Shown here: positions 18,425-36,199 of the stretch, piece after piece
Layout: every line of letters starts with the position of its first letter
Numbering within the stretch: position 1 is the stretch's first letter
Assembly (NCBI GenBank): GCA_947629165.1
Contig: CANRCR010000006.1
Span: forward strand, 1-57,902
Length of the DNA: 57,902 nt
Source of the DNA: an uncultured Bacilli bacterium
GTDB taxonomy: Bacteria > Bacillota_I > Bacilli_A > RF39 > UBA660
Reading direction: 5' to 3'
Position numbers and translations under genes: made by a program
The notes under the pieces: generated by a model
The model's input: the letters and a program-made list of their open reading frames with translations, nothing else
Told to the model about the DNA's origin: nothing
Database searches by the model: none

Positions 18425-20053
18425 ATGAAAAAGGATTGGAAACAACTATTAATAATTGTAACACTTGCAATGATAAGTATGATTCCCATGATAACAGAAC
18501 CTCATATTCATGGACACGACACCATATTTCATGTAGCCAACATAGACCAAGTAACCGAAACTTTAAATAAGAACTTCTTTTTTGTTCCAATTGCCTCGAA
18601 AGTAGGAAATAATTTAGGATATGGAACGCATCTCTTTTATCCCGTATTGCCTCATATTACCGGTTCTTACATAACGCGAATAACTTCTTTTTTAGGGGGA
18701 GATACTTTCGATGGACTAACTGTTACCTACACGCTCGTATCCATTATTTCTGCAATTATCATGTACTATTTAGCCATGCGCCTTTTCAAACGAAAAACAT
18801 GGGCTTTAATAACAGCAACCATCTATATCTTTATGCCCTATCGTCTAGGAGATATCATTGTTCGAAGTGCCTATAACGAAGTATTTACATTTCTATTTAT
18901 TCCCCTCATCCTTTTAGGACTCAGTTATCTAGTAGATCAAAAACCATCGATGAAAAAAAGTTATCTTTATCTCGTGATTGGTTATACCGGACTTTTGTAT
19001 AGTCACTGGAGTATTGCTTTATATTTTACTTTATTTCTAATTACTTTTGCTTTCATCTATCGAAAAGAATTATTTCAAAAAGAAAAATTAATACTACTCG
19101 GTAAAGTAGTCCTTACAGTTACCCTTTTTCTTTTACCGATGTTAGTATCCATGCTCGAACAACGATTTGGAGGAAATTATCTAGTCTTTCAAAAAGATTA
19201 TGTTTCAGGACTAGCCTTCTTAAGAACCTATAACAATACGCTTCGCGATTATTTTATTCCAGAACAGGATTACTCGTGGGCTATTCCAAGATTCATGAAT
19301 GTCGTTGTTCTAGTACTTCTTGTGATTACGTTAATTGTTTTCTTTCAAAAAAAGAAAAAAGAAAAAAATCTAAAATTTTTACTTCTTTTTAGTCTCGTAT
19401 CCTTTATAGTAACCCTCTCATTTTTCCCTTGGGAAATAGTCCCTTCTCCCCTTTACATGATTCAATTCTCTTGGCGTTGTGAAACCTTTTTAGTAATTTC
19501 ACTAAGCCTTTTAGTTCCTTATTTCCTAACAGCAATTCAAAAGAAGCATCAAAAAGTAGTTTTTTGTATCGTCGAAGGACTTATCCTATTAACGAGCATT
19601 CCCCTTCTAATTCAATTATCAAATCATACCTATATATTAGAAAAAGTAGAACCGAATAATGGAATGGGACACTCGATGGAATATCTTCCCGTAAAAACTT
19701 ATGAAAACATAGACTATTATACCAATCGAAATCAAGATATCAATATTATCGAAGGAACGGCCACTGTCGAAGTAATCGAAAATAATACTCCCAATTTAAG
19801 TTTTAAAGTACAAAATAATAGTGATACTTTTACTTTAGAACTTCCTCGTCTTTACTATTTAGGTTATCAATTAGAAGGAGAAAAAGTATTATCGATCGAA
19901 GAAAGTGAATATGGAATGGTACAAGTTACCGTCGGAGGAAATGGCACTTATCACTTAACTTATCCAGGAACTACACTTTATCGAATTGCCTCTTTTGCAC
20001 CCCTATTAGGAATCGCTTTATTACTTTACATTTTAAAAAAAGTGTCTAACTAA
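18425..20053 (+). CDS. Multi-pass membrane protein, GT-C-like (PTPS-related membrane domain)
   Basis: 542 residues, roughly ten to twelve membrane helices and a short extracytoplasmic C-terminal beta domain before the last helix. The first loop contains HGHDTIFHVANI, resembling the acidic/His first-loop motif of GT-C-fold glycosyltransferases, and FMPYRLGDIIVRSAYNE matches the YR...R..-E pattern of the 6-pyruvoyl-tetrahydropterin-synthase-related membrane family. Such proteins are thought to act in envelope glycan assembly. It is divergently placed from hup and shares a terminator with the large gene downstream. Enzyme activity is inference. Confidence 0.75.
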   Translation: MKKDWKQLLIIVTLAMISMIPMITEPHIHGHDTIFHVANIDQVTETLNKNFFFVPIASKVGNNLGYGTHLFYPVLPHITGSYITRITSFLGGDTFDGLTVTYTLVSIISAIIMYYLAMRLFKRKTWALITATIYIFMPYRLGDIIVRSAYNEVFTFLFIPLILLGLSYLVDQKPSMKKSYLYLVIGYTGLLYSHWSIALYFTLFLITFAFIYRKELFQKEKLILLGKVVLTVTLFLLPMLVSMLEQRFGGNYLVFQKDYVSGLAFLRTYNNTLRDYFIPEQDYSWAIPRFMNVVVLVLLVITLIVFFQKKKKEKNLKFLLLFSLVSFIVTLSFFPWEIVPSPLYMIQFSWRCETFLVISLSLLVPYFLTAIQKKHQKVVFCIVEGLILLTSIPLLIQLSNHTYILEKVEPNNGMGHSMEYLPVKTYENIDYYTNRNQDINIIEGTATVEVIENNTPNLSFKVQNNSDTFTLELPRLYYLGYQLEGEKVLSIEESEYGMVQVTVGGNGTYHLTYPGTTLYRIASFAPLLGIALLLYILKKVSN

Positions 20054-20069
20054 ATGAAAGACACTTTTT
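20036..20069. terminator. Bidirectional terminator
   Basis: 11-bp stem AAAAAGTGTCT / AGACACTTTTT between two convergent genes; its right arm reaches the stop codon of the 1629-residue gene. Confidence 0.88.
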
Positions 20070-23000
20070 ATTTATGAAGTATTTTAGGGGGATCCTCTTC
20101 ACAAGAAGACGCATCATCTTGCGGTAATACTAATCCCGTAGGATTTAAATCCTGTAAAGTATCGTCTGGAGCAATCAAAGTAGGAACTTCTAGTTTTGGA
20201 ACAATTTCGGAAGGAGAAGAAGGATTAGTTACCACATAAGAAGCGGCATCGAAAGGAGCCCTCTCCTCGGTTGAAGGAGAAGTTACCGCGTCCTCACTAG
20301 CAATCTCTCTATCGACATCACTTAAATCGGTAAATGTAACATCGATAGGTTCAATCGAATGAAGTGGAAGGGGTTGATTCAAATCATCAATTCGCTCAAA
20401 GAAAGTATCGATTGTACTTTCTACTTTTTCCACCGTATCATCCGTCAAACTGTAATTATGTAACAATTTTACATTTTCATTCGCCTGATCACGGTTACGA
20501 GTAATCATAGAATTCATAAGATTCATCACTCTTTGAGTGAGTTCTAACGAATAGTTTTGAGTCGTAAGTCCCGCCTGAATTGCAAATTGACTTCCAATGA
20601 TAGGCATAAACACTTCTTTCGACCGTTCGAGTCCATCGATGGTAATCATATGACTCGACATAATCTGATTAATTTGTACCAACTGCTGTTTTAAAAGTTC
20701 TTCAGATTCTTTTAACCTTCGCACTTTTGATTCCATTACTTCTCGTTTCGATTTCCAGTTAAAATATTCATCCATCTTCGATTTGTCTCGGCTAAGTGAA
20801 AGTTCCTTTTTCCGTGCCTGCTTATAAGCTTCTCGAGCAACTTTCATCAATTCCTCATTTTTGGCCTTATGTGCTTCGATATAACGCCGGATTGCATCGT
20901 ACCCCGCAACCTGATCTGTCATCAAATGAATATGTCCATCTAACACTTCTTGTAAATAAGGAAGTGCATTAGGATCGAGTATTTTTTCTTCCACTAAATT
21001 AGGTCCTAACAAAGTATCTAAAAGTTTTTTAGGGAAATATTTTAAAATACCTTTTCTAGGTTTTTCAACCGATTCTACTAGATAGATTTTTTCTTTTATT
21101 TCATTAATCGGTTGAAGTGCTTTTGAAGTAGAAGCTAATTCACTCGCCGATGGAAGAGCATCTTGAATATACCGAAGATGATTATAAACGGAGTCTCCGA
21201 AGTATAAAATCGATTTCATATCGTTAAGATCTAATTGTGTAATTGGGGTATTTAAAAGTCGACTGATACGTGTTTCTAAATCAAGTGATAGATCATAATC
21301 TTTTAACGTGGTCACTTCGTATTTTAAAATTTCGTAATCGGCACCAAGTACTTGAGTAACCTCTTTAAGAAGCGGATCGACCCCTACTTCTTTATCGAAC
21401 AAGAACTTGGCCATTCCTTCAATGGTTTTCTTTTCCTCATCGATTACCGGATCTCCTAAAATAATATGTCCATTCAAAGCACCTTCGATTCCCGTTGTCT
21501 CCATCGTTTTTGTAAAATAAGGAAGGTATTGGTCAAAGAAAAGACGATAATTTATGGAGTCACTATTTAACATCTTAAGTGTTAAAGGATCGATATCGAA
21601 ATATTTGGTTATTTTTGCTAAAGTTAAATTCTGCCGTTCAAAATAAGGAACACTTTGATTGGGTACAAAGTAAAGCGCTAATAGCAAAGACATTTTTTGA
21701 ATAGCCGCATCACTGTAAGAAGACTGTTTAGGATATTCGTTACGAAGATACGAATGGATAAGAAGTACTTTTTTCATATAGTCACGTGCTTCTTCAGAAG
21801 AAAATGACGCGATTGTTTTTTGCGCATAAGAAAGTTCTTTTTCTTCCTGCATTTTTTGAGCACGTAAGATAGCTTCTTGATTTTCTTCTTCTATAAACTG
21901 AGCTATTTTACTATCGAAATCATCAAGTGGATTTTTCTCTTTGCTATGTTCTAGACGATACGCATTTTCAAAGATAGATGCGATCGTGATGGCTTCCCTA
22001 TCTTTTCCATCGTTAACTCCACCAGTTATGAAAGGAGAAAATTGATTAACCAAAACATCAATATCGTAGTTGGGGTCAATCGACTGTATTTTTAAATTAG
22101 GGGTAAAATTCACTGGATGCTTCTCCAAATAACGTTTAATAACTTTACTCTCCTCATTCATTCGTACATAGAATAAAGCATTTTCTAAAGCGCTAGCAAC
22201 CTTTTTAGGATCCTTTGAATCCTCTTTATAATACTGTAAATAAATAGCACAAGCTTCCTTTAAATAGTCCTGAACAGAATCGGATAAATTTTCAAAAAAG
22301 GTTTGTTCTAACATTGCTAAACGATGTTTTTCTTTTTCTTCAAGATAAGTATCCATTTGCTTCATAAAATCCTTTTCGATAGCACTATTTCTTTGAAATG
22401 ATTCAAAGGTATTTTTTAAAAATTCAAAAGGAACCGTTTGGGTATTAACAAAATTAGAAATCAAAGAACGCATCGTAATATCGGAACTAATTAAATTACG
22501 GTTCTCTCCCTCGAAAATAAGTGCTCGAAATTTATTACTTAATTCGTAGAAAGACATTTCCGATTGTTGAATTTGTTCTTCGGTAAGCGGTAATTTTAAA
22601 TATGATAATAGAGCACTAGGGGTGACATCATGATCCATAAAAAAGATTCCTAAATCATTTTCAAAGTGACAACTAGCTAAATAAAAAGCGAGTCCTATAG
22701 CATCTTCTTCATGGGCAAGAAGCATAGTATCATGTTTTCCTTTTTGCATAGCGGTAATAATCGCTGCATCACATTTGGCAGTATAATCAATAAAGTTTCG
22801 TACATCACGACTTAATTCGTTGTAAAAGTCATGTTTATCGCGGACAAACTGAAGTCGTTGTAATTTCTCTTTTTCTTTTATCAATTGCTGATCCATAGTA
22901 TCAAAAAGATGGATTGAACAATCGAAATGGGCCAACAAGTTATCGACTGTTAAATTACCGACAAACGAAGTGTCAAGTAGTCGTCCAAAAATAGTAGATA

Positions 23001-24957
23001 CCGTCAACTGCTCTTTGGGTATATCTTGATAATAACGATAGTAATAACTTCTAAGAAGAGGTAATATTTTCGAAAAATTAAGTGTAGAAGAATCCGCCTT
23101 AACCGGAGCCAAATCAATCATTAAAATAGCATCCTTTAAATCAGTTTCATCAACTCCAATCGAATCTAAAATCGTCGTTAAAGAAACACCATGCTCTTCT
23201 AAAATAGAACAAATAGCCGCTCCATCGGTAATCTGATGATTCCCTTTTTCCCGAACCTGTCGTGTAAAATAAAGCGATAAAAATAACGATAACGGAACAA
23301 TATCATAAGTTCCTAACTTCGCTTTATTTTCAAGTAAAACATGATGAATGATACCGGCATTTTTAATATACTTATTAACGACCAATGGATAACCTTCAAA
23401 AAGTTTTCGTTCTAGAAGGGTCAAATACTGTTCGTGTTCTTTATCGTATAACGATTTAAATGTCCTTTTAACAAAATCCGATGAAAGTTCACCGAAAAGA
23501 AGACGTCCTGCTAAAAGCTGATAATTATGATTATAAAAATCATCAAAAACCAAATCTAATAAATCAATCGGTAATAACGTAGAACAAAATAAAGGATCTT
23601 GAAAAGCCTTGCCACAATAAGTACGAAGAATATCTTCGATCATAGAAAGATCTGCTTCTTTAGAAGGTTGTTCTATTTCTGGAATATTAAATTTTGCTTG
23701 TTTAAAATAAGTTAAATAAGAGGGATAGTAATTAGCCATAGTAGTAAATAATATAATAAAATACCGATTTATTTCCTGAACAATCGAAACATCTTCAATA
23801 ATAAAAGATGACTTTTTAGGAATAGTAAAAGAAGGGGCCTTTAGATAAGTCGTTAAATAAGGGGCTACATACTTTAAATAATTCAAAGTTTCTTCAGGTA
23901 TTAAATCAAGAAATTGTTGAAAAGATAAATTATTTTCAGTTCTCTTAGAATAAAGCGAATCACTTTGATACAAAGGAACTATTATAGAAGAAAAAGAAAG
24001 ATTATTTTTTTCTAATATTCCTTTTAAACGAACATATTTATCCGCAGGTACCTGACTTAACCATATATTAAAAGCAGAAGAGGTAATTAATGAAGAATAA
24101 TAAGCAAAATCATCGATTAGTTCTTCTTGTGAATGAGTAGGATTTCCATCGATTATTTGCTTTAGTAGAATATTAAATGTTTTTGTAATAAATTCATGTT
24201 TTTGGCCTTGATTTGCACAACTATTTAATTTTTCTTGAAATTCATCTCTCGTTATAACTTTATCTTGTTCCTCATTTGCTTTCTTACGACCATCTATATC
24301 GAGTGTTATGGCATCTCCATTCTCTTTAAAAATTTTCTCTAACAATTCGAAGTCTTCATCGGAATACTCCGCTAACAACTCCTTATATAAAAAAGCGAAA
24401 TTAGAATCATGTACCTTCCAGTTACATCGAAACAGATAAAAATCATCGATAATATCTTCGATAGGTTTCTTTGATTTCTTAGAATTTTTACCAAGTAACG
24501 AATTGAGGGACATAATAACTGCTTGATTATTAATTGATTTTATGGTTTCGGTATTTACTTCAGTTCTTCCGTCTGTTTCATCCTCTTGAGAATTATAATT
24601 TTTAAATAGTCCCGCCGCATATTCGTGTGCATATTCAAAAAGAGTATGTCTGTGATAGGTACGTAACCGCTTATTAGCGAGCCGTATTGATTCGATGGGT
24701 AATGACTCTACTAAATGTTTGTAATTACTAGCAAATTCGTTATCGAAAAGAGACCAGTTTCTTAAAAACGTAGCATAATGAGTTACTAAATCATCAAGAT
24801 CTCCATTATAATCATTTTTAATCAAGGCCCACAATAACTTCTTAGTCCCAGACATGTATACTTCTTTCCTTTTGTCGTCGACAGACTTTGAAGTTACCTC
24901 TTTAGCTAATTCTTCAACATAAGAAATAACATCTTCATTTTCATAATCATCAAGCAT
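20068..24957 (-). CDS. Very large helical protein of unknown function (1629 residues)
   Basis: Longest gene in the window. No signal peptide, no membrane helix, no nucleotide-binding or catalytic motif. Predicted almost all helical. The first 320 residues contain three loosely repeated units (about 39-97, 147-213, 259-319), each with a D-D/L-hh-D-D/h-F/Y then W/N-x-x-x-D/S-x-F-A-x-x-Y pattern. Residues about 1390-1530 are coiled coil; the last 110 are Pro/Asp/Thr-rich and look disordered. AGGAGG precedes ATG, and a vegetative-type promoter is visible. Lies directly after spoIVA on the same strand. Role could be structural or scaffold; not recognised. Confidence 0.85.
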   Translation of the reverse strand: MLDDYENEDVISYVEELAKEVTSKSVDDKRKEVYMSGTKKLLWALIKNDYNGDLDDLVTHYATFLRNWSLFDNEFASNYKHLVESLPIESIRLANKRLRTYHRHTLFEYAHEYAAGLFKNYNSQEDETDGRTEVNTETIKSINNQAVIMSLNSLLGKNSKKSKKPIEDIIDDFYLFRCNWKVHDSNFAFLYKELLAEYSDEDFELLEKIFKENGDAITLDIDGRKKANEEQDKVITRDEFQEKLNSCANQGQKHEFITKTFNILLKQIIDGNPTHSQEELIDDFAYYSSLITSSAFNIWLSQVPADKYVRLKGILEKNNLSFSSIIVPLYQSDSLYSKRTENNLSFQQFLDLIPEETLNYLKYVAPYLTTYLKAPSFTIPKKSSFIIEDVSIVQEINRYFIILFTTMANYYPSYLTYFKQAKFNIPEIEQPSKEADLSMIEDILRTYCGKAFQDPLFCSTLLPIDLLDLVFDDFYNHNYQLLAGRLLFGELSSDFVKRTFKSLYDKEHEQYLTLLERKLFEGYPLVVNKYIKNAGIIHHVLLENKAKLGTYDIVPLSLFLSLYFTRQVREKGNHQITDGAAICSILEEHGVSLTTILDSIGVDETDLKDAILMIDLAPVKADSSTLNFSKILPLLRSYYYRYYQDIPKEQLTVSTIFGRLLDTSFVGNLTVDNLLAHFDCSIHLFDTMDQQLIKEKEKLQRLQFVRDKHDFYNELSRDVRNFIDYTAKCDAAIITAMQKGKHDTMLLAHEEDAIGLAFYLASCHFENDLGIFFMDHDVTPSALLSYLKLPLTEEQIQQSEMSFYELSNKFRALIFEGENRNLISSDITMRSLISNFVNTQTVPFEFLKNTFESFQRNSAIEKDFMKQMDTYLEEKEKHRLAMLEQTFFENLSDSVQDYLKEACAIYLQYYKEDSKDPKKVASALENALFYVRMNEESKVIKRYLEKHPVNFTPNLKIQSIDPNYDIDVLVNQFSPFITGGVNDGKDREAITIASIFENAYRLEHSKEKNPLDDFDSKIAQFIEEENQEAILRAQKMQEEKELSYAQKTIASFSSEEARDYMKKVLLIHSYLRNEYPKQSSYSDAAIQKMSLLLALYFVPNQSVPYFERQNLTLAKITKYFDIDPLTLKMLNSDSINYRLFFDQYLPYFTKTMETTGIEGALNGHIILGDPVIDEEKKTIEGMAKFLFDKEVGVDPLLKEVTQVLGADYEILKYEVTTLKDYDLSLDLETRISRLLNTPITQLDLNDMKSILYFGDSVYNHLRYIQDALPSASELASTSKALQPINEIKEKIYLVESVEKPRKGILKYFPKKLLDTLLGPNLVEEKILDPNALPYLQEVLDGHIHLMTDQVAGYDAIRRYIEAHKAKNEELMKVAREAYKQARKKELSLSRDKSKMDEYFNWKSKREVMESKVRRLKESEELLKQQLVQINQIMSSHMITIDGLERSKEVFMPIIGSQFAIQAGLTTQNYSLELTQRVMNLMNSMITRNRDQANENVKLLHNYSLTDDTVEKVESTIDTFFERIDDLNQPLPLHSIEPIDVTFTDLSDVDREIASEDAVTSPSTEERAPFDAASYVVTNPSSPSEIVPKLEVPTLIAPDDTLQDLNPTGLVLPQDDASSCEEDPPKILHK

Positions 24958-26577: not shown

Positions 26578-27537
26578 TTATTTCGTCAAAAAGTTCATTA
26601 TTAAGTCAACAAGTATCTCTTTTTCTTTTGGATTCGATTCAGCAATTAACAAAGTAATAGCAACCAAAGTGTAATTATCAATAACTTGTCCATTTTCCGT
26701 ATAGAGAATATGGTAAAATGATAAAAAATAAATAAACAATGTCGCTGCAATACGTTTATTACCATCGATAAAAGTATGATTTTTAGTAATAAGATATAGA
26801 AAGTTAGCCGCCTTCTCTTGAATACTTGGATAAAGTTCTATGCCATCAAAAGTTTGATAAATATTATCGATGATACTTGCTAATCCGTTATTTCGTTCAA
26901 GAGCAAAGAGATTACTATCATTTTGAAATTTTAATTTACGAATAATTTCAACACATTCATCATACGTAATTCTCTTTTCATTTAAAGTCCCTTTTGGTTT
27001 AACAATACGTTTATGATCATAATCATCTAAAATATCTAAAGCCTTGGAATAATTATTTATTACTTTGATAATACCTTGTGCCTCATCACCACTTAGCGTC
27101 TTATCAATTCTTCCTGCAATATCAATCAACTTAACTGTTTTTTCTAAATAAGCAAGTCGCTTCTCATTCGCAGCATACCCTTTAATCATATAATCTTTTA
27201 ATACTTTAGTCGCCCACCTTCTAAAAATAACACCATTTTTAGATTTTACACGATAACCGACACTAATAATCATATCAAGATTATAGTACTCTACTTCTCT
27301 AGTTTGAGTTTTATCCGATAATGCTCCATGTTTAGTAGTATGTGCAAATTTTGCACATACCACTTTTTTATCCAATTCATCTTCTTTAAAAACATTATTT
27401 ATATGTCTTGTTATAACGGTTCTATCTCTATCAAAAAGTTGAGCCATTTGTTCTTGTGTGAGCCACACTGTTTCATCTTTGACATTCACCTCCAATTTAA
27501 CATTTTGGTTTTCAAATAATATTATTTCATTGTCCAT
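26578..27537 (-). CDS. RhuM-Fic fusion protein
   Basis: 319 residues. The N-terminal 150 match the RhuM (virulence/phage-associated) family: VWLTQEQMAQLFDRDRTVITRHINNVFKE, then EVEYYNLDMIISVGYRVKS and FRRWATKVLKDYM. The C-terminal third is a Fic/Doc domain with HTFIDGNKRIAA (HxFxDGNKR), the AMP-transferring active site. Proteins of this design are common in mobile and accessory regions of gut bacteria. No antitoxin-type inhibitory motif (S/TxxxE-G/N) is obvious and no separate partner gene adjoins. Separated from the next gene upstream by a terminator. Activity is expected, target unknown. Confidence 0.9.
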   Translation of the reverse strand: MDNEIILFENQNVKLEVNVKDETVWLTQEQMAQLFDRDRTVITRHINNVFKEDELDKKVVCAKFAHTTKHGALSDKTQTREVEYYNLDMIISVGYRVKSKNGVIFRRWATKVLKDYMIKGYAANEKRLAYLEKTVKLIDIAGRIDKTLSGDEAQGIIKVINNYSKALDILDDYDHKRIVKPKGTLNEKRITYDECVEIIRKLKFQNDSNLFALERNNGLASIIDNIYQTFDGIELYPSIQEKAANFLYLITKNHTFIDGNKRIAATLFIYFLSFYHILYTENGQVIDNYTLVAITLLIAESNPKEKEILVDLIMNFLTK

Positions 27538-27628: not shown

Positions 27629-27650
27629 AAAAAAAAGGAGTTCTACTCCT
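27629..27650 (-). terminator. Intrinsic terminator ending the accessory gene run
   Basis: 6-bp stem AGGAGT / ACTCCT with a 3-nt loop and eight T on the minus strand, just after the shorter NUDIX gene. Confidence 0.88.
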
Positions 27651-27654
27651 AAAA

Positions 27655-28122
27655 TTATTTTATTAGATTTTCTACCGTATGATAAATTCGATTTGGATCT
27701 TTTACCATATCTTTAACACTCGATGGATAAACATCATATGAGTCGATATTTTTAACATCTACCCACTCAAAATTAATCCAATCCCCTTCAAGTCCTTTAA
27801 ATTTTGTTTCTACAATATCCGCTTGATAAATGGCTTTATAGATAAGATTTATTTGTTGATTGTGGTATCCTTTATCATTTACCATTTCTTCACTAATAGC
27901 TAAAAAGGAATAATCTAGATTTTCCCAACCTAATTCTTCTTTTACTTCTCTTTTAGCGGCATCAACACTTTCTTCTAATTCGTGTACCTTACCACCTGGA
28001 ATTAAATAGAACTGTCTTCCTTCCACATTGAAAAGAAGAACCTTCGATTGATCTCGATTAAAAATCAAAACAGAAACTCTACATAAAAATTGAAAATCTC
28101 CATTCGTATATCGAATATCCAT
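27655..28122 (-). CDS. NUDIX hydrolase A
   Basis: 155 residues. NUDIX box G-x5-E-x7-REVKEELG is complete (GGKVHELEES...REVKEELGW). The box coordinates Mg for cleavage of X-linked nucleoside diphosphates. Substrate cannot be deduced; the small size and plain layout suit MutT/ADP-ribose-pyrophosphatase-like members. It is the last gene of a closely spaced same-strand run and is followed by a terminator. 17 bp separate it from NUDIX B. Confidence 0.92.
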   Translation of the reverse strand: MDIRYTNGDFQFLCRVSVLIFNRDQSKVLLFNVEGRQFYLIPGGKVHELEESVDAAKREVKEELGWENLDYSFLAISEEMVNDKGYHNQQINLIYKAIYQADIVETKFKGLEGDWINFEWVDVKNIDSYDVYPSSVKDMVKDPNRIYHTVENLIK

Positions 28123-28139
28123 AAAGTTTCACCTCAAAA

Positions 28140-28622
28140 TTATTTTATCTTTTTAAATAAATTTAACATAAATTCATTAAATACAAGGGTATCATCATGA
28201 TTCAAAATACGTGTAATAACTTCTTCGATAGGAATCCATTTTACTTCAGATAATTCCTCTTTTTGTAATACAAAATCTTCTTCTTTTAAGTTACTCTTCA
28301 CAAAATAATAGTAAGTAAGATTATGTTTTCCCAAAGGTATCAATTTTGGTCTTTCTACGGATACACCTAATTCTTCTTGAATTTCTCTTAAAGCAGCTTC
28401 TTCTAAACTTTCATAAGCATCCACATGGCCTGCTAAAACCGCCCACTTATTAGCGTTAAATCGTTTGTTTGTACTTCGTTTTTGTAAGAGGACTTCCTTA
28501 TTATCATTGACGATAAAAACAACTATTTCATAATGCAATAAGTTTCGATCGTGAAGTTCTTTTATATCTACCACTTCACCTGTAAAATTTCCATTGTCAT
28601 CAATAACTTCAATTAATTCCAT
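28140..28622 (-). CDS. NUDIX hydrolase B (IDI/YfcD-like layout)
   Basis: 160 residues. NUDIX box GHVDAYESLEEAALREIQEELG. The N-terminus ELIEVIDDNGNFTGEVVDIKELH...LHYEIVVFIVN resembles the IDI-like/YfcD subgroup, which begins with a D-x-x-G/N start and then an H-x-x-hhhh strand. Start ATG at 28622 behind GAGG; a longer frame to 28646 would overlap the preceding ART-like gene further. It overlaps nothing after correction, lying 13 bp past that gene. Substrate unknown. Confidence 0.9.
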   Translation of the reverse strand: MELIEVIDDNGNFTGEVVDIKELHDRNLLHYEIVVFIVNDNKEVLLQKRSTNKRFNANKWAVLAGHVDAYESLEEAALREIQEELGVSVERPKLIPLGKHNLTYYYFVKSNLKEEDFVLQKEELSEVKWIPIEEVITRILNHDDTLVFNEFMLNLFKKIK

Positions 28623-28635
28623 AAGGATACCTCGA

Positions 28636-29481
28636 TTAAACAACAATTACTATGCCATCTAAATTACAAATATAAGCATTGGGTAAAAGGGCTTTTATCT
28701 TTGCCAAAATCTTTTTATCTTTTTCATATTTTCTTCCAACTAAAATACCCTCGATAAAATTAGCAGGAATTCCAAATAAAACGGCACTTTCTCGGTCTGT
28801 AAAGAAATCATCTTTATGCTTACGTTCTCGTAAAAATTTACGAAGATAATCGGGATTGACAAATCCTTGAACATCTTCATCACTCATAGATTTAGATAGA
28901 ATATCCCCCTTTAATAACCGTTTTATTTCCTTTGACTGCCCATCAAAGATAATACCAATCTGAACCCTATCTTGAACAAGACTTGGCATAAACCGAGCTT
29001 CTTTCGTCTGCTCCATTACCCACATATGGCAATCATACTTATTAATAGCATCCATGACATGTGCCATTTCATCATAAGGAATCACAGCCGTTTTATTTCT
29101 TCCAGTATCGATTCCCTTAAAATAAATACCACTATATAAAATAGTTCCTCCACTATAAAAATGAATATAATCTTTTAAAGCATAATTTTGTTTTAAATTC
29201 CATACGCCAACCGAACTAGGATATTTAGATAATCTTCCATCAATAAACCACCCTGAAATAAGTCCATCCTTGACGATTTCTTCTAAACCTTTTATATTCT
29301 TGTACGTTCCATGCAAAAGTGTTCCTTTTTTTAAATATACCGAATCGCCAATAGAATAATGATGTTTTGGTAAAACATAATTACGAATCGCATAATAAGT
29401 ATCGATTTGTTCAAGCATAATCTTTTTTGAAGTGCCTTCTATTTTTTCATTTACTTGTTTCACATAAGTTTCTCGAGTCAT
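28636..29481 (-). CDS. Putative ADP-ribosyltransferase-like protein (intact copy)
   Basis: 281 residues, no database family that I can name. Strand-and-motif pattern suggests an ART fold: LLHGTYKNIKGLEEIVKDGLIS (His57 in an HGT motif followed by a hxxIhxxGL helix, as in H-Y-E type ARTs), a later Tyr in ILYSGIY (116), and FIEGILVGR (Glu244) near the C-terminus. FMPSL and YICNLDG are conserved with the damaged copy at 34.1-34.9 kb. ATG lies behind AAGGAG; its first 35 nt overlap the Cys-rich gene. ART activity is a hypothesis; the gene itself is certain. Confidence 0.8.
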   Translation of the reverse strand: MTRETYVKQVNEKIEGTSKKIMLEQIDTYYAIRNYVLPKHHYSIGDSVYLKKGTLLHGTYKNIKGLEEIVKDGLISGWFIDGRLSKYPSSVGVWNLKQNYALKDYIHFYSGGTILYSGIYFKGIDTGRNKTAVIPYDEMAHVMDAINKYDCHMWVMEQTKEARFMPSLVQDRVQIGIIFDGQSKEIKRLLKGDILSKSMSDEDVQGFVNPDYLRKFLRERKHKDDFFTDRESAVLFGIPANFIEGILVGRKYEKDKKILAKIKALLPNAYICNLDGIVIVV

Positions 29482-30112
29482 TAATATTAGCTCCTTTCAA
29501 TTTATTAATAGAATACATCTTTTTATTACGCTTGTGCAAATAAATCCCATTTCTACCAAGTCGATAAAGAATCCTTATTCCAGAATAAGTTAAAGTATAA
29601 GTATATAAATCTTTTAAAACGTCTTCTCTTCGAGAAAAGAAATCAGATTTTATAACTATCCGATTTTTAAAACTCAAGAGTTTTAATACTTTTAAATCAT
29701 CAAAAGTTATAACATTAAATCTTTTCCTAACTTCGGAACAGTTAAACAATTTACAAGCTAAATTTTTAGTAGAACATCCATGGCAAGTTTGGTATCTACA
29801 TTTTCGACAACAACCATTACATAAATGGGTACCTCTTTGTTTATAGCACTGTCCATTTTTAAAGCCACAAATATTTTTATCCCCTACTTGATCATCTATA
29901 ATCTTACATGACTGATCGTAGATATATTTAATACGTTCCCTTCTTTTTTTTATATTTAATGCGTAAGCAATCGGCTCAACATAAGGTAATTTTTTATTAT
30001 TTTCGACAGTAAAGAAAGTGCTACGATACAAAAAAGTTTTATAAAATTTTAGTTTCTTTAAAAAATTATTATAATCTTGCTCACTATCAATTACGATTGA
30101 CTTAATTTTCAT
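29447..30112 (-). CDS. Cysteine-rich putative metal-binding protein
   Basis: 221 residues. Ten Cys lie between residues 82 and 125 (CGFKNGQC, CNGCCRKCRYQTC, CSTKNLACKLFNC), a spacing that suggests two zinc sites or an iron-sulfur cluster. The flanks are Lys/Arg/Tyr-rich; the C-terminal part (about 135-200) looks like a winged-helix-like basic domain (LYTYTLTYSGIRILYRLGRNGIYLHK). The GCxTxxLACKLFxC ending of the cluster recurs in uncharacterised gut Firmicutes proteins as far as I recall. Its end overlaps the ART-like gene by 35 bp, so the two are coupled. Confidence 0.75.
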   Translation of the reverse strand: MKIKSIVIDSEQDYNNFLKKLKFYKTFLYRSTFFTVENNKKLPYVEPIAYALNIKKRRERIKYIYDQSCKIIDDQVGDKNICGFKNGQCYKQRGTHLCNGCCRKCRYQTCHGCSTKNLACKLFNCSEVRKRFNVITFDDLKVLKLLSFKNRIVIKSDFFSRREDVLKDLYTYTLTYSGIRILYRLGRNGIYLHKRNKKMYSINKLKGANINDSRNLCETSK

Positions 30113-30118
30113 AAGAAT

Positions 30119-33016
30119 CTACTTTATTCCCCAACAAAATATATAAATAATAGCGATAACAATCATACAAACAGCTACAATCAATAGAGAAAAAGTTAAA
30201 GCATTCCCAAAACCACGGTTTGAGGTGTTTTCTGTATTATTCTTTTTTACCAATTGCTTATTTTCATTCAAGGTAGATTGCAATTCCTCTTTATCTCTCT
30301 TTTTTTGCTGAATTTGTGCTAATTGTTCGGCAACAACTTGTTTATGCTCTGGCTGAACAGTTGTTCTTTGTTCTGTTAACAAGGTCACTGTTTCAACAAA
30401 TTCATCTTTTTGACTACACCCCATTCCCATCGCATTAACAACATCCACTTTAGCATTTTCAAGGCAACTTTGTTGAAATGAAGGTGGTTGAGGAGATTTT
30501 TCTAATGTATTACCAGACGACGGAGGAGCAAGAGTACTTTCTTTCGTACCCGTTAAACTGTTTTGTATTCGATCATTCAATTTACTGCCAATAGTAATCG
30601 TCATTGCTTCCGGATTTAAATCATCGGGTATTTCCCTAGTAAGTTCCACCATAGTTTGATGAACAAATTGTGCCTCTCTAGTTAATCCTTGCTCTTGCAG
30701 GGGTTGAATTAAAGAATCAAGTACTTCATAATTTAATTCGTTAGGGTTTCCTTTACGATAATATTTCTCACAGAATTGATTGATAAGTGGCACCACACAT
30801 TCATTTTCATTGTCGTAATTTGGTTCCCTTCCATGTTCTCTTCGAAAATCTTCAACATATTGGACAATACTTTGATCAATATCTGTCTTTACTTTATTTA
30901 AAGTTTCTAAAACACGTTCGTCTTTCGCATAAAATTGAATCGTCTTTTGAACAGCACCCCATTTTTTACCGAGTGCAGTAGGATCATCCTTAAGATGTTT
31001 TACACCCCAAATATATATTTCAAAAGAGGACATAAAAGACGATAATTGCGCTTCTTTCGAATAATCTTGAACAATACCTAATCTTTTCGTAGCTTTTAAA
31101 TAATTTAATAAATCCAAAGCTTTAAATGATACTTGTTGAACAGGTCGAACACTTCCTTCCGATACCCATTCACCAGAACTTGCAGCGGTAGCAGGATTAA
31201 CATATTGATGGAACTTTTCATTAGGCAATTTATAGATTGTAATATATTTTGAATCTAAAGTATCTTCGATAGAACCTTCAAAAATCTCTTTAATAGCTTG
31301 AACGGATTGTTCTCTTTTATCATCAAAATAAACTCTATCCCGTGGAAAAATTAATGAAACACGAAAGGATGCCATCGTAAAACAACTAACCGGACTTATT
31401 CCCGCATAAACATAAACACCTTTTTGCGTACTTTCGGTTGGTTGCAATTGTTCGATTCCAGGATTTAAGGAAGCATGAAACATGTTTTTTTCACCATTTT
31501 CATAAGCAGTAATCCACTGCTCTAGTAATTCGTAATTATCTAAAATTTGAGTACCTGTCTGTTGTTCTTTACTACGAATAATCATACGACAATAGTCTTG
31601 ATAAAAGGAATCACTAAGAGAATATACTTCCTTAGCTTCCGCTGTCCTTAAAAGATGAATATCACACGTTCCAATAGGAGCTGGATAATTCAACCGATTG
31701 CGATCTAAGGCATCGGCATCTTTTAATATATCGGACATCAATTGAATTTCTTTCTTTTCATCTTCCGTAAAAGTATCATCATCAAAAACAATAGTATCTG
31801 ATTCTAGAGCATGCTGTTTGATAAGCAAAGAAACTATCTTGATATCTTTATCGCTCATCTTGCCTTTCATCATTTGTTCAAATCTGGTCGCACCCACTTC
31901 ACCATGTTCTTGATTAGATGCTCCTACTGTTTTACCAATATCATGATAAAGACTAGCACACATTAACAAATTAGTATTAATTGGTGTTTTCAAGCGATTA
32001 GAAATCATTTTAGTATAAGTAAGTACTTTTTCGATGTGTTTTAAATCATGTTGATAATCACTCGTCGCGCTATATAATTGTTCTTTAATAGCATGATTTA
32101 TTAAAGAACCAATCGTTTCCCGATCTTTGAAACTTAAACCATATTTAGTTAACATTTCAATTGAAAACATTTTAATATAACTTTGCTCTTTCGTTGAATC
32201 AAAAACAGATAAACCAAGTTGACGAGCAAAGTTTTCATCCCTTAACTCTTCTTGAATTAAAGGAATGAGCTGTGAATCATAGGAAGCAGTACGTTCAATT
32301 AATTTTTTCGTAAAATCTAAAATTTGCTTTTTTCGAATCAAATACCATTCTTCATCCGATTTCGTAATAGTATCAGAATGCGCCTTTTTCTTTTTATCAA
32401 AATTATATATATCATTGATTGCCGAAACAAAGTCATTGAATTTGTTTTCTGTAAGTTTATTGAAAGCATCTTCAAAGGAAAAGTTATTACCCAAGAATTG
32501 ATCAGCAAGTTTTCTTTCTCCAACTACCACTTTCATAACACGCATAATATTTTTTACAAAATAAAGATAATCCTCCGTTTCGTTTAAGCGGGCCTCTTCG
32601 ATATCTTCAGCAAATAGTTGTGTACAAGCTTCATTAATCCCCGTATAAACACTTCCTAAATTGGAATAAGAATATCCAAAAATAAGTTGTTTCCCATCTC
32701 TCTTTTCAGAAAGACTATGTAATAGTTCATGGGTAAGCTGAAATTGAGCTAATTGAGGATCACTTAACGCAAAATTTTCATCCACATAAATCTCCGTACG
32801 ATCAGGAAATGGCCAACAAACTAAAGAAGAACCTCTTGTTTGACGAACCGGAGCATAATAAAGAGAAACGTTATCCTTTAGATTTTTTTCTAAATTTATT
32901 ACAGAAGCTTTCATACGAAAATATTCCCAAGATTTTCTTTTCTTTTCTGTAATAATGTCGATGGGTTGTGCCTTTCGATATTTCAATAATTCATTATATA
33001 TTTCTTGGATAGTCAT
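30119..33016 (-). CDS. HExxH - HD domain - C-terminal membrane anchor protein
   Basis: 965 residues, three parts. (1) About 1-150: zincin-like, HELLH at 96-100 followed by GINEACTQLFAED (Glu about 129), the pattern of an HExxH...E metalloprotease. (2) About 320-445: HD domain, with His327, YHDIGK (His358-Asp359), His371, His402 and KDADALDR (Asp433/435), a full H...HD...H...H...D set of a metal phosphohydrolase. (3) Helical middle (450-790), Gln/Pro-rich linker, and a hydrophobic helix at about 940-962 with a short tail, so it is probably tail-anchored. ATG follows AGGATC-type site. Function not known; combination unusual. Confidence 0.85.
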   Translation of the reverse strand: MTIQEIYNELLKYRKAQPIDIITEKKRKSWEYFRMKASVINLEKNLKDNVSLYYAPVRQTRGSSLVCWPFPDRTEIYVDENFALSDPQLAQFQLTHELLHSLSEKRDGKQLIFGYSYSNLGSVYTGINEACTQLFAEDIEEARLNETEDYLYFVKNIMRVMKVVVGERKLADQFLGNNFSFEDAFNKLTENKFNDFVSAINDIYNFDKKKKAHSDTITKSDEEWYLIRKKQILDFTKKLIERTASYDSQLIPLIQEELRDENFARQLGLSVFDSTKEQSYIKMFSIEMLTKYGLSFKDRETIGSLINHAIKEQLYSATSDYQHDLKHIEKVLTYTKMISNRLKTPINTNLLMCASLYHDIGKTVGASNQEHGEVGATRFEQMMKGKMSDKDIKIVSLLIKQHALESDTIVFDDDTFTEDEKKEIQLMSDILKDADALDRNRLNYPAPIGTCDIHLLRTAEAKEVYSLSDSFYQDYCRMIIRSKEQQTGTQILDNYELLEQWITAYENGEKNMFHASLNPGIEQLQPTESTQKGVYVYAGISPVSCFTMASFRVSLIFPRDRVYFDDKREQSVQAIKEIFEGSIEDTLDSKYITIYKLPNEKFHQYVNPATAASSGEWVSEGSVRPVQQVSFKALDLLNYLKATKRLGIVQDYSKEAQLSSFMSSFEIYIWGVKHLKDDPTALGKKWGAVQKTIQFYAKDERVLETLNKVKTDIDQSIVQYVEDFRREHGREPNYDNENECVVPLINQFCEKYYRKGNPNELNYEVLDSLIQPLQEQGLTREAQFVHQTMVELTREIPDDLNPEAMTITIGSKLNDRIQNSLTGTKESTLAPPSSGNTLEKSPQPPSFQQSCLENAKVDVVNAMGMGCSQKDEFVETVTLLTEQRTTVQPEHKQVVAEQLAQIQQKKRDKEELQSTLNENKQLVKKNNTENTSNRGFGNALTFSLLIVAVCMIVIAIIYIFCWGIK

Positions 33017-33039
33017 AAGATCCTCCTTTCTTTTATTTA

Positions 33040-34137
33040 CTACAATTTATCGATATTTATTAAAAATTTATTGATCGATTTATACCAATCAAACATTCCT
33101 TTTTTCTTATTGGCATATTTTTGGAATTTTTCTTCATCATAATCATCTTTCATTGTGTCTTTATATCTATTCAAGGTTCTTTCGTAACAAGTATTAACAC
33201 TCGTCCGCATAACAATAACTTCTCCTTTTAAGATAGCATAATCTTTTATATTTCGATATTGCGCAGAATCAATTACAATTGTCTTGTCCGTGTCTTTATA
33301 ATAGTCTAAAACTTTTACATAGAATTCATCAAAGTTCGTAAATAAATAATCGTTCGGTTGATTGCTAAATACTTTTCTTAATGCAAGGCATTCCGTATTA
33401 TCAGATGGTCGATCACTAAATACAACATCTGTATCAATTACAATATAATTATCATCGTTTATATATTGATTACTAAAATAGGATTTACCACTTCCCGATT
33501 CACCAGTCAAATTAATAACCTTATCACGCGTAAGTTCTTTAACATATGGTTTTTTATCAACAAAACGACTAACTAACAAATCCGATTTAATTTCATGTAG
33601 CCACGTATCAACTTCCTCAATTAATTCATTCCCAGGTTTACGTCTATCTTCACCGCCATGAGAAATAAAATTATTCCATTCTTCTAATACTGTATCAATA
33701 TCTTCCTTATGAACTCTATCTTTCATAATAGCCAAAGCTGTATTTCGATAATTCATAAGACTTACTGCTCCAAGTGCCTTATAATAAGATTTTTCTGGAA
33801 TATTTGAAATTTTATAATAATGAAGTGCCAAATCGTCATCAATTGGTTGAGGATTATGAAGAATAATTTTATTAGCACGATACACCACCGTAGCACCCTC
33901 TAAACGAACTACTTCAGCGTCATCCGGAATCTCAACTTCATAAACGATATTGCCACGATGTAACCATCTAATAATACAATCTTCCGTCGCATAATTAAAT
34001 CCACCAAAGTCACTAGGATTATCAGCATTTGGATTCCAATTATTCGCAACGTTCACTTCATCAATTTTGTATTCAAAATCACTTTTAGCACCCGATGTAG
34101 TACCAAACATAACTTTTACATATTTATTGTTTTTCAT
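33040..34137 (-). CDS. P-loop kinase-like protein with unknown N-terminal domain
   Basis: 365 residues. The N-terminal about 105 residues (KVMFGTTSGAKSDFEYKIDEV...GGFNYATEDCIIRWLHRGNIVYEVEIPDD) look like a compact beta domain; a helical middle follows; the C-terminal about 160 residues are a P-loop NTPase of the polynucleotide kinase/zeta-toxin class with GESGSGKS, then VIDTDVVF and the lid-like CYERTLNRYKD. Start at 34137 behind AAGGAG. It sits 22 bp before the HExxH-HD gene. The N-terminal pattern with EVEIPDDAEVV could be another ART-like or sensor domain; that is a guess. Confidence 0.8.
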   Translation of the reverse strand: MKNNKYVKVMFGTTSGAKSDFEYKIDEVNVANNWNPNADNPSDFGGFNYATEDCIIRWLHRGNIVYEVEIPDDAEVVRLEGATVVYRANKIILHNPQPIDDDLALHYYKISNIPEKSYYKALGAVSLMNYRNTALAIMKDRVHKEDIDTVLEEWNNFISHGGEDRRKPGNELIEEVDTWLHEIKSDLLVSRFVDKKPYVKELTRDKVINLTGESGSGKSYFSNQYINDDNYIVIDTDVVFSDRPSDNTECLALRKVFSNQPNDYLFTNFDEFYVKVLDYYKDTDKTIVIDSAQYRNIKDYAILKGEVIVMRTSVNTCYERTLNRYKDTMKDDYDEEKFQKYANKKKGMFDWYKSINKFLINIDKL

Positions 34138-34141
34138 AATT

Positions 34142-34954
34142 TTACTCCTTAATAACTTTACCATCTAAACTACATATATAACTTTGGGGAAATAGTAATT
34201 TCAGATGTTCTAACATATTATCATCTTTTTCAAAATTTCTCCCTACAATTATTCCCTCAATAAAACATTTATTAATCCCAAATATAACATAAGAAGCCCT
34301 TTCAAGAAAAGTATTGTTCCTATCATTAAAAAAGTTTTTTCGCAAATCTTTTTTAATAAAATAATTAGAAATTTTTTTATCAAAATTAGTTCCATTAATA
34401 TCATTTAAAAGTAATGATTTTCCATATTCAGATTCAAGATTAAGTATGAAACCAATTTGATTTATATCTCGAGCTAAGCTAGGCATAAACCTAATTTCCA
34501 TAGAAGATTCTGCTTTCCATAACCAATGATCGATAGTTCGCATATCTTCAACGAAGCTATCCAATTACCTATATGGAATCTGTTTAGTAAAATTATTATA
34601 TCTAACAACCATTCCACTGTAATTTTTAATATAATCAGAAAGTAAAATATTATTTTTTACTCTCCATAACCCAACCACAAATTGAAAAGCATGATTTCCA
34701 AAATCACCGGTTGCCTCTTTACTTAAAATTCCATGTTTGGCAATGAAATCTGCTATTTTTTCATTATTACCTATTCCATGTAGATAATGGTCTGTTGATA
34801 ACTTTACATCATCACTGATTTTATATTTATGTTGTTCTAATTCAAAATTGCTAGTTTCAATATTAAAAAATTGATCTATTTGATTATTTACAAGTTTTCT
34901 TATTTTTCCTTTATACTTCTTGGCAGAATACTTTTTACACTCAAAACTATTCAT
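34142..34954 (-). pseudogene. ART-like gene interrupted by one in-frame TAA (paralogue of 28.6-29.5 kb gene)
   Basis: Two consecutive frames, 34565-34954 and 34142-34564, are in the same phase and split by a single TAA at 34567-34565. Joined they give about 271 residues aligning end to end with the intact 281-residue copy: YLHGI for LLHGT, LLSDYIKNYSG for ALKDYIHFYSG, IRFMPSLARD for ARFMPSLVQD, FIEGIIVGR for FIEGILVGR, SYICSLDG for AYICNLDG. The stop falls where the intact copy has Glu (GAA to TAA). The downstream part has only a TTG start with no ribosome binding site. The upstream part has GGAGG and ATG. Likely a recent nonsense mutation or a sequencing error. Confidence 0.85.
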
Positions 34955-35062
34955 CTTTTACCTCCAACCATTTTTAATTAAAATATAATTCATATGCAAA
35001 TGGAACTAATTTCTTTGATAATTCTGCCTAATTGAATTATTTTAATAAAATCTTTCATTGTC

Positions 35063-35695
35063 TTAAAATCTAATATTCTCAATACTTACCAATTGATCTT
35101 TATCAAAAATAAGTTTAAATAATTCAGGAGATGACCAGTTACCATCGAAAACTAATTTATCTTTAAAATAAATCTCAATTAATTTAGTGGTCTCATTTAA
35201 TTGCAGTCTACACCATTTACTTAACATAACAGTTAAAGCAGTCCCATGAGAAACTATCATTACCCTCTTATCTTCATATTTGACTAACAATTCTTGCAAG
35301 GCCTCTTGCATACGACGTGCCACCTCATTCAAAGATTCGCCATTATCCATCTTATAATTCCAATCATGAAATTGATGTTCAAAGAAATCTTGCGGAAGTT
35401 CATCCCAAGTTTTTATCCCGAATTTCCGTTCGCCAAAGCGTTCATCAATGTTTAATTTAATACCATTATTTTCAGCAATATATTTAGCCGTACTCATCGC
35501 TCTTACATAATGAGAAGAATACAGCACATCAATATTGTTAAGTTCCCAAATACTTGCCATCGCTTGCGCTCTTTGTTCACCGAAAACACTAAGTGGATTT
35601 TTTTCATTTCTTATTTGTTCCTGTTCATGAGCACAATAATCTCCTAACAAATCTCGAAATGGTTGAGCATGTCTCGCAATATAAACTGTTGTCAT
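35063..35695 (-). CDS. Histidine phosphatase (phosphoglycerate mutase-like) family protein
   Basis: 210 residues. N-terminal catalytic motif YIARHAQP (RHG/RHA), SSHYVRAMSTA for the second Arg, GERKFG near the phosphate pocket, and VSHGTALTVML with the second catalytic His. This is the layout of cofactor-dependent PGM/CobC/PhoE-like phosphatases; RHA in place of RHG is found in some members. The ATG overlaps the stop of the HIT gene (ATGA), so the two are co-translated. Substrate unknown; the partner HIT protein hints at a nucleotide or sugar phosphate. Confidence 0.9.
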   Translation of the reverse strand: MTTVYIARHAQPFRDLLGDYCAHEQEQIRNEKNPLSVFGEQRAQAMASIWELNNIDVLYSSHYVRAMSTAKYIAENNGIKLNIDERFGERKFGIKTWDELPQDFFEHQFHDWNYKMDNGESLNEVARRMQEALQELLVKYEDKRVMIVSHGTALTVMLSKWCRLQLNETTKLIEIYFKDKLVFDGNWSSPELFKLIFDKDQLVSIENIRF

Positions 35696-36135
35696 TTTGT
35701 CTCCTCCAAAGCAAATTCATTTTGCATCATTTGAAATATTTCTAATTTTTCCGTTTTCGTAAAAATATCTTTTTGTCTTTTTAGTTTACTATTTGCCCAT
35801 TTCCAAAAATTGTAACCAAAATGCCTATCTTTATAAGTTTTTTCACACAATAAAACTTTACTTTGATATCGTGGAATAAACTGAAAATGTACGTGAGGAG
35901 TTTCTCCATCTTTATAAGCATTATTCATAAGACAAGCAAAATTAAACATCGAAGTCTGAAATAATTTCTTACAAACACGTTCTAGTTCTTTTTCAATAAT
36001 TCCAAGTTCCACCCATTCTTCATTAGATAAATCGCTTAAAGATTCTTTCTCGCAAGATACAATACATTGTCCTGGAAATTCTTGACACCAGTCAACAAAT
36101 ATTACTTCCCAATATTTTCCTTTATATAACTCCAT
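35692..36135 (-). CDS. HIT-family protein with HxHxQ active site
   Basis: 147 residues. The histidine-triad site reads HVHFQFIPRY: the third His is replaced by Gln, the form used by GalT-type nucleotidyl transferases and Ap4A phosphorylases rather than HINT hydrolases. The N-terminus (YWEVIFVDWCQEFPGQCIVSCEKE) matches a HIT domain beta sheet; NAYKDGETPHVHF supplies the loop. First gene of the run, behind GAGG, with its own promoter. Shares a 4-bp overlap with the histidine phosphatase. Confidence 0.85.
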   Translation of the reverse strand: MELYKGKYWEVIFVDWCQEFPGQCIVSCEKESLSDLSNEEWVELGIIEKELERVCKKLFQTSMFNFACLMNNAYKDGETPHVHFQFIPRYQSKVLLCEKTYKDRHFGYNFWKWANSKLKRQKDIFTKTEKLEIFQMMQNEFALEETK

Positions 36136-36170
36136 AAGAACCTCACTTATCTTTTTATTATCTTTATTTT

Positions 36171-36199
36171 ATTATATAAAATTATTAATAAAAGGACAA
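36171..36199 (-). promoter_or_regulatory. Promoter at the head of the accessory run
   Basis: Minus strand TTGTCC (36194-36199), 17-bp spacer, TATAAT (36171-36176), about 36 nt before the HIT gene start. Confidence 0.75.

What the first reader, a model, noticed from the sequence alone, without database searches (positions are those of the whole stretch)
27629..36199. Single-strand accessory block of nucleotide-acting enzymes bounded by a promoter and a terminator
From a SigA promoter at 36171-36199 to a terminator at 27629-27650, nine genes run on one strand with small gaps or overlaps: HIT, histidine phosphatase, ART-like (broken), P-loop kinase-like, HExxH-HD-TM, Cys-rich, ART-like (intact), NUDIX B, NUDIX A. 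Seen: order, overlaps, motifs. Known: HIT, NUDIX, HD, P-loop kinases and ARTs act on NAD, nucleotides or nucleotide-modified groups. Inferred: they form one module, for example an ADP-ribose-based modification or defence pathway whose products NUDIX and HIT enzymes process. It sits between spoIVA and spoVIF/der, which are close together in B. subtilis, so it looks inserted.
Basis: partly seen in the sequence, partly recalled or inferred. Interest (0 to 1): 0.72.

Follow-up and report, generated by a model that had tools for sequence, protein, structure and literature searches.

The report
Reshuffling ADP-ribose-linked gene module
A nine-gene block inserted between two sporulation genes of an uncultured gut bacterium is one copy of a recurring, constantly reshuffled set of enzymes built around a previously unclassified protein that folds like an ADP-ribosyltransferase; what it modifies is unknown.

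Summary
Nine same-strand genes (27655-36135) are inserted, with a RhuM-Fic gene and two small genes, between spoIVA and spoVIF, which lie 64-462 bp apart in six relatives. The terminator is real. The 'SigA promoter' is not distinguishable from chance.

The module inference holds better than expected. Locus L216 keeps the core order HIT-HISP-kinase/N-domain-HD-Cys-ART-NUDIX, with 75-85% identity, uniform dS (0.66-1.05) and dN/dS 0.09-0.19. Among 79 further loci around the intact ART-like gene, the same HIT, HISP, KIN, NUDIX and HExxH families recur nearby in changing order. Each family also occurs alone.

The intact ART-like protein is a new family with no Pfam, PDB-sequence, PHROG or PADLOC match. 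A confident AF2 model (pLDDT 90) retrieves seven DarT chains first, then Tpt1 (best E 3.4e-3). It is nearly confined to one family of gut Bacilli. Some sister loci add an ADP-ribosylglycohydrolase, HopA1-like or further HExxH proteins.

Best reading: a lineage-restricted, recombining NAD/ADP-ribose gene neighbourhood (conflict or modification). Substrate and activity are untested.

The parts
35692..36135 (-). HIT-like protein (HxHxQ motif)
   Evidence: Pfam HIT below cutoff; orthologs of 57-80% identity recur in sister loci
35063..35695 (-). histidine phosphatase (branch 1)
   Evidence: PF00300 6e-29; overlaps HIT by 4 bp; paired with HIT in L216, L228, G076, G046
34142..34954 (-). second ART-like gene, interrupted by one in-frame TAA; its subfamily lacks the conserved RE motif (RA instead)
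33040..34137 (-). KIN: novel N-terminal domain (185 aa) fused to a P-loop kinase domain
   Evidence: weak AAA_22/AAA_18/AAA_33 hits and Pnkp-like PDB hits; AF2 pLDDT 92 for the N-domain, no significant fold match
30119..33016 (-). 965 aa: HExxH domain, HD domain, HAS-motif domain, C-terminal TM tail
   Evidence: PF01966 2.5e-10; N-terminal part swapped for an alpha/beta-hydrolase-like part in L216
29447..30112 (-). Cys-rich protein with 8 invariant Cys in its family
   Evidence: no Pfam or PDB match; common alone
28636..29481 (-). intact ART-fold protein (ART281), anchor of the module
   Evidence: AF2 pLDDT 90; Foldseek top 7 = DarT chains, then Tpt1; 122 relatives in genome contigs
28140..28622 (-). 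NUDIX_B hydrolase, intact Nudix box
   Evidence: PF00293 1e-23; ATG at 28622
27655..28122 (-). NUDIX_A hydrolase, intact Nudix box
   Evidence: PF00293 1e-11; near ART281 in sister loci
27636..27650 (-). intrinsic terminator closing the block
   Evidence: sequence
26578..27537 (-). RhuM-Fic protein after the terminator, inside the same insertion
   Evidence: PF13310, PF02661; PADLOC candidate PDC-S23 7.5e-124

Best explanation
The block is one instance of a lineage-restricted, recombining accessory gene module whose anchor is a new family of ART-fold proteins. Most likely ART281 transfers ADP-ribose from NAD+ to a nucleic acid, protein or small molecule. The NUDIX, HIT, histidine phosphatase and kinase partners would then trim, recycle or convert the ADP-ribose or AMP products, and the membrane-tailed HExxH-HD-HAS protein would regulate or execute the response. 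Shown: one-strand organisation, insertion at a core site, co-inheritance with L216, recurrent co-localisation, domain swapping, purifying selection, predicted ART fold of ART281. Inferred: transferase activity, pathway order, and a conflict or defence role rather than housekeeping modification.
For: Insertion between spoIVA and spoVIF. L216 keeps the block with dS 0.66-1.05 and dN/dS 0.09-0.19 for seven genes. In 40 close ART281 loci, KIN 15 near vs 2 far, NUDIX 14 vs 0, HIT 5 vs 2, HExxH/HD/HAS pieces 4 vs 0 (near = within 3 kb, far = 3-8 kb). In 145 genomes, 12 co-located pairs at six independent places vs 0.53 expected (the model treats each genome as one 1.15 Mb stretch). ART281 fold hits are DarT first. 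ADP-ribosylglycohydrolase PF03747 6.6e-33 next to HISP and ART281 in L246, and beside KIN in G043 and G057. Swapped N-terminus of the HD protein, the kind of accretion and displacement described for NAD/ADPr conflict systems (PMC9503650).
Against: Each family also occurs without the others. The Foldseek hits are weak (best E 3.4e-3, TM 0.29-0.37), and profile comparison with a DarT gave 1.3% probability. The HISP association with ART281 is weak by the near/far test (7 vs 6), and Cys221 shows none (2 vs 2). No macrodomain, NADAR or glycohydrolase lies in this window's own block. GNAT genes are also common near these ARTs.
Confidence: 0.5

Rival explanations
1. Accessory hot-spot: the genes are small-molecule-modifying passengers (like neighbouring GNAT genes) that accumulate in the same variable islands without working together.
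For: GNAT genes are frequent near ART281 of both clades; each family is often alone; order is not conserved outside L216; the spoIVA-spoVIF site holds unrelated inserts in other genomes.
Against: Specific orthologous families recur together, not just superfamilies; near/far contrast for KIN and NUDIX; uniform dS across the block; tight spacing and small overlaps.
Confidence: 0.25
2. NAD-dependent RNA end processing or repair: ART281 acts like Tpt1/KptA, the kinase like Pnkp, and NUDIX, HIT and phosphatases clear ADP-ribose products.
For: Tpt1 is the next fold hit after DarT; the kinase domain weakly matches Pnkp and the PHROG polynucleotide kinase.
Against: No RNA ligase, 2H or macro domain among the nine genes; the kinase matches are weak.
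Confidence: 0.1
3. Toxin-antitoxin or abortive defence of the DarTG type, with a NUDIX or the broken paralog neutralising ART281.
For: DarT-like fold; second ART-like copy degraded and its subfamily without the conserved RE glutamate; RhuM-Fic next door.
Against: No macro or NADAR antitoxin in the block; no PF14487 match; no dedicated antitoxin-like small gene paired with ART281 across loci.
Confidence: 0.15

Closest known systems
DarT / DarTG (PF14487)
   Same: Predicted ART fold with DarT chains as the first seven fold hits; HG motif at strand 1 and a conserved Glu in a late strand.
   Different: No DarT profile match, hhalign probability 1.3%, no macro or NADAR antitoxin; lineage-restricted; different neighbours.
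ARG-centred NAD-ADPr host systems (Iyer et al. 2022, PMC9503650)
   Same: Conserved core with variable modules; NUDIX, HD or other phosphatases; some sister loci contain an ADP-ribosylglycohydrolase.
   Different: Here the transferase-like gene is present and central; no ARG in this window; no NUDIX/WYL transcription factor or TY-chaperone seen; histidine phosphatase and HIT in place of rhodanese-phosphatase.
NAD/ADPr and RNA-repair neighbourhoods (Tpt1/KptA, Pnkp)
   Same: ART-fold enzyme plus P-loop kinase and nucleotide hydrolases.
   Different: No ligase, 2H or macro domain.

Membership tests
DarT (PF14487) | match to the DarT family profile | tested here: not met
   no Pfam hit at E<=1 for ART281 and none to DarT for 12 relatives; hhalign 1.3%; canonical DarT in 1 of 241 genomes of the order, not in G000
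DarT (PF14487) | ART fold | tested here: inconclusive
   AF2 pLDDT 90; seven DarT chains then Tpt1 head the list, best E 3.4e-3, prob 0.91, low TM
DarT (PF14487) | catalytic glutamate (E160/E152 type) | tested here: inconclusive
   E231 in 87/89 relatives, E161 in 89/89; equivalence to DarT1 E152 not established
DarTG toxin-antitoxin | adjacent macrodomain or NADAR antitoxin | tested here: not met
   none of the block proteins matches macro or NADAR
ARG-centred host systems | ADP-ribosylglycohydrolase core gene | tested here: not met
   none in G000; present in sister loci L246, G043, G057
Known anti-phage systems (PADLOC) | profile match to a defined system | tested here: not met
   only a generic NUDIX candidate (PDC-S07) and weak hits in the block; PDC-S23/S05 match only RhuM-Fic outside it
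NUDIX hydrolases | profile match and intact Nudix box | tested here: met
   PF00293 for both; box read in translation
Histidine phosphatase branch 1 | PF00300 match with RH and SHG motifs | tested here: met
   6e-29; motifs read in translation
HIT superfamily | HIT profile and HxHxHxx triad | tested here: inconclusive
   14 bits against a cutoff of 21.5; motif HVHFQF, third His replaced by Gln; HVHFHF in L278
ADP-ribosyltransferases | NAD+-dependent ADP-ribose transfer | not testable with these tools
   needs biochemistry

The most novel reading that the evidence does not exclude
A previously undescribed, lineage-specific ADP-ribosylation system of uncultured gut Bacilli: a new ART family plus a reassorting set of ADP-ribose processors (NUDIX, HIT, histidine phosphatase, glycohydrolase, kinase) and membrane-tailed multi-domain proteins whose N-terminal domains are swapped between loci, working as a diversifying conflict system.
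Probability: 0.33. Interest if true: 0.75.

Novelty: new variant of a known kind. Interest (0 to 1): 0.55.

Why it matters
It would add a new ART-fold family and a new partner set to the catalogue of NAD/ADP-ribose systems, in a large group of uncultured gut bacteria where no such system was found in the papers searched. The recurrent partners (HIT, histidine phosphatase, kinase) point to a testable product-processing pathway.

Tried and rejected
SigA promoter as a boundary: rejected, chance level. Mobile origin on phage or plasmid: no relatives of ART281 or the KIN N-domain in IMG/VR; ART281 not in phages or plasmids; KIN not in plasmids; HIT only one distant phage hit. KIN N-domain as an ART: the fold search gave only a weak OspC3 hit (E 0.28), left undecided. 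First impression from 145-genome single-gene searches that the genes are independent was revised by the 79-locus survey. Sequence-level homology to DarT: not detected. A first DarT comparison used a wrong reading frame and was redone.

Full report
What was checked. Nine minus-strand ORFs between 36135 and 27655 are present as described. Gaps are short, with a 4-bp overlap (HIT/HISP), a 35-bp overlap (Cys-rich/ART281) and one 108-bp gap (HISP/broken ART). Starts at 34137 (KIN) and 28622 (NUDIX_B) are better than the longest ORFs, by position of ATG and ribosome-binding sequence. The broken ART-like gene has one in-frame TAA and no frameshift. The terminator at 27650-27636 is convincing; the promoter is not above the shuffled background.

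Insertion. In six relatives spoIVA and spoVIF lie 64, 81, 95, 125, 137 and 462 bp apart, followed by der; others carry 0.4-2 kb there, in several cases with unrelated genes. Here 10.65 kb separate them. The block is therefore inserted at a mildly variable core site.

Organism. The genome is 1.09 Mb in 30 contigs. Relatives carrying ART281 are titled uncultured Bacilli, Tenericutes, Erysipelotrichaceae, Candidatus Onthousia or Ventrenecus. That this is an RF39-like group is my inference.

Is it a module? Single-gene searches in 145 genomes of the family first suggested independence: ART281 in 16, KIN in 35, Cys-rich in 26, HIT in 15 (8 relatives at high identity), HISP in 24 at E 1e-30, NUDIX_A in 12 at E 1e-12. 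Excluding the own genome, 12 pairs of different families lie within 5 kb, at six separate places, against 0.53 expected when positions are drawn at random on a 1.15 Mb genome. That null ignores contig breaks and accessory islands, and six of the pairs come from one locus (G066), so the six places are the fairer count.

A scan of genome contigs with the ART281 alignment gave 122 relatives and 79 loci. L216 has lipoprotein, HIT, HISP, KIN N-domain, HD protein, an extra gene, Cys-rich, ART281 and NUDIX_B in the same order and strand. For seven shared genes dS is 0.66-1.05 and dN/dS 0.09-0.19, which fits descent of the block as a unit under purifying selection (a simple Nei-Gojobori estimate, dS fairly high). 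L216 lacks the broken ART gene, the kinase half of KIN and NUDIX_A, and its HD protein has an alpha/beta-hydrolase-like N-terminus instead of the HExxH part (the hydrolase reading is from sequence inspection only).

In the 40 loci closest to ART281 (L216-L255), KIN pieces occur 15 times within 3 kb and 2 times beyond, NUDIX 14 and 0, HIT 5 and 2, HExxH/HD/HAS 4 and 0, but HISP 7 and 6 and Cys-rich 2 and 2. KIN fusion genes count as two pieces in this tally. HISP is thus enriched across the wider neighbourhood rather than next to ART281; its clearest partner is HIT. Cys-rich is probably a looser passenger. In the more distant clade (L256-L294) the association is weaker.

What the anchor is. ART281 has no Pfam, PDB-sequence, PHROG or PADLOC match. 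The AF2 model from 13 sequences has mean pLDDT 90. The first seven PDB fold hits are DarT chains and the eighth is Tpt1; best E 3.4e-3, none below 0.001, TM low. The best viral hits are unnamed proteins; an iridovirus protein appears at rank 7, and an iridovirus family is described as DarT-related in PMC9503650. In 89 sequences H57 is 88/89, G58 89/89, E161 89/89, R230 89/89 and E231 87/89; the two exceptions belong to the subfamily of the broken paralog. Which glutamate is catalytic cannot be decided here. In DarT1 the ART glutamate is E152.

Other members. The KIN N-domain model is confident (pLDDT 92) but has no significant fold match; OspC3, recalled as an ADP-riboxanase, is first at E 0.28. 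The P-loop half weakly resembles Pnkp. Sister loci add an ADP-ribosylglycohydrolase, HopA1-like proteins above the curated cutoff, one fused to the HExxH domain, HExxH proteins (8 of 197 ORFs near the close clade, 2 of 210 near the distant clade, 1 of 209 in controls) and GH10/PHP proteins with a similar TM tail.

Interpretation. The data support a recurring module and give moderate support to an ADP-ribose theme. Activity, substrate and biological role are inferences. Passenger accumulation in an accessory hot-spot remains a serious rival.

Noticed in passing
window 30119-33016 C-terminus; L216:9409-12669; L228:6281-8056: Otherwise unlike multi-domain proteins (HExxH-HD-HAS, GH10-PHP, GH10) end in a similar C-terminal region with one TM segment, a possible common membrane tail.
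   Followed up: partly
window 26578-27537: RhuM-Fic gene (PADLOC candidate PDC-S23) in the same insertion; RhuM relatives also lie near ART281 in L243, L258, L272, L285.
   Followed up: partly
window 20068-24957: 1629-aa protein with a sub-threshold TelA match next to spoIVA; with the DUF6541 protein at 18425-20053 it separates spoIVA from the HU-like gene, unlike in several relatives.
   Followed up: no
L233:5462-7333; L225:4029-5111: HopA1-like domains (PF17914 above cutoff), one fused to the HExxH domain seen in the window's HD protein.
   Followed up: partly
L233:8875, L234:6577, L238:13494, L251:13545, L266:4032: A small sigma-70-like factor gene recurs in ART281 loci.
   Followed up: no
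window 29447-30112; G000:C2:7388-7852: Cys-rich family with 8 invariant Cys, a second copy in the same genome and matches in 26 of 145 genomes, mostly away from the module; no known family.
   Followed up: partly
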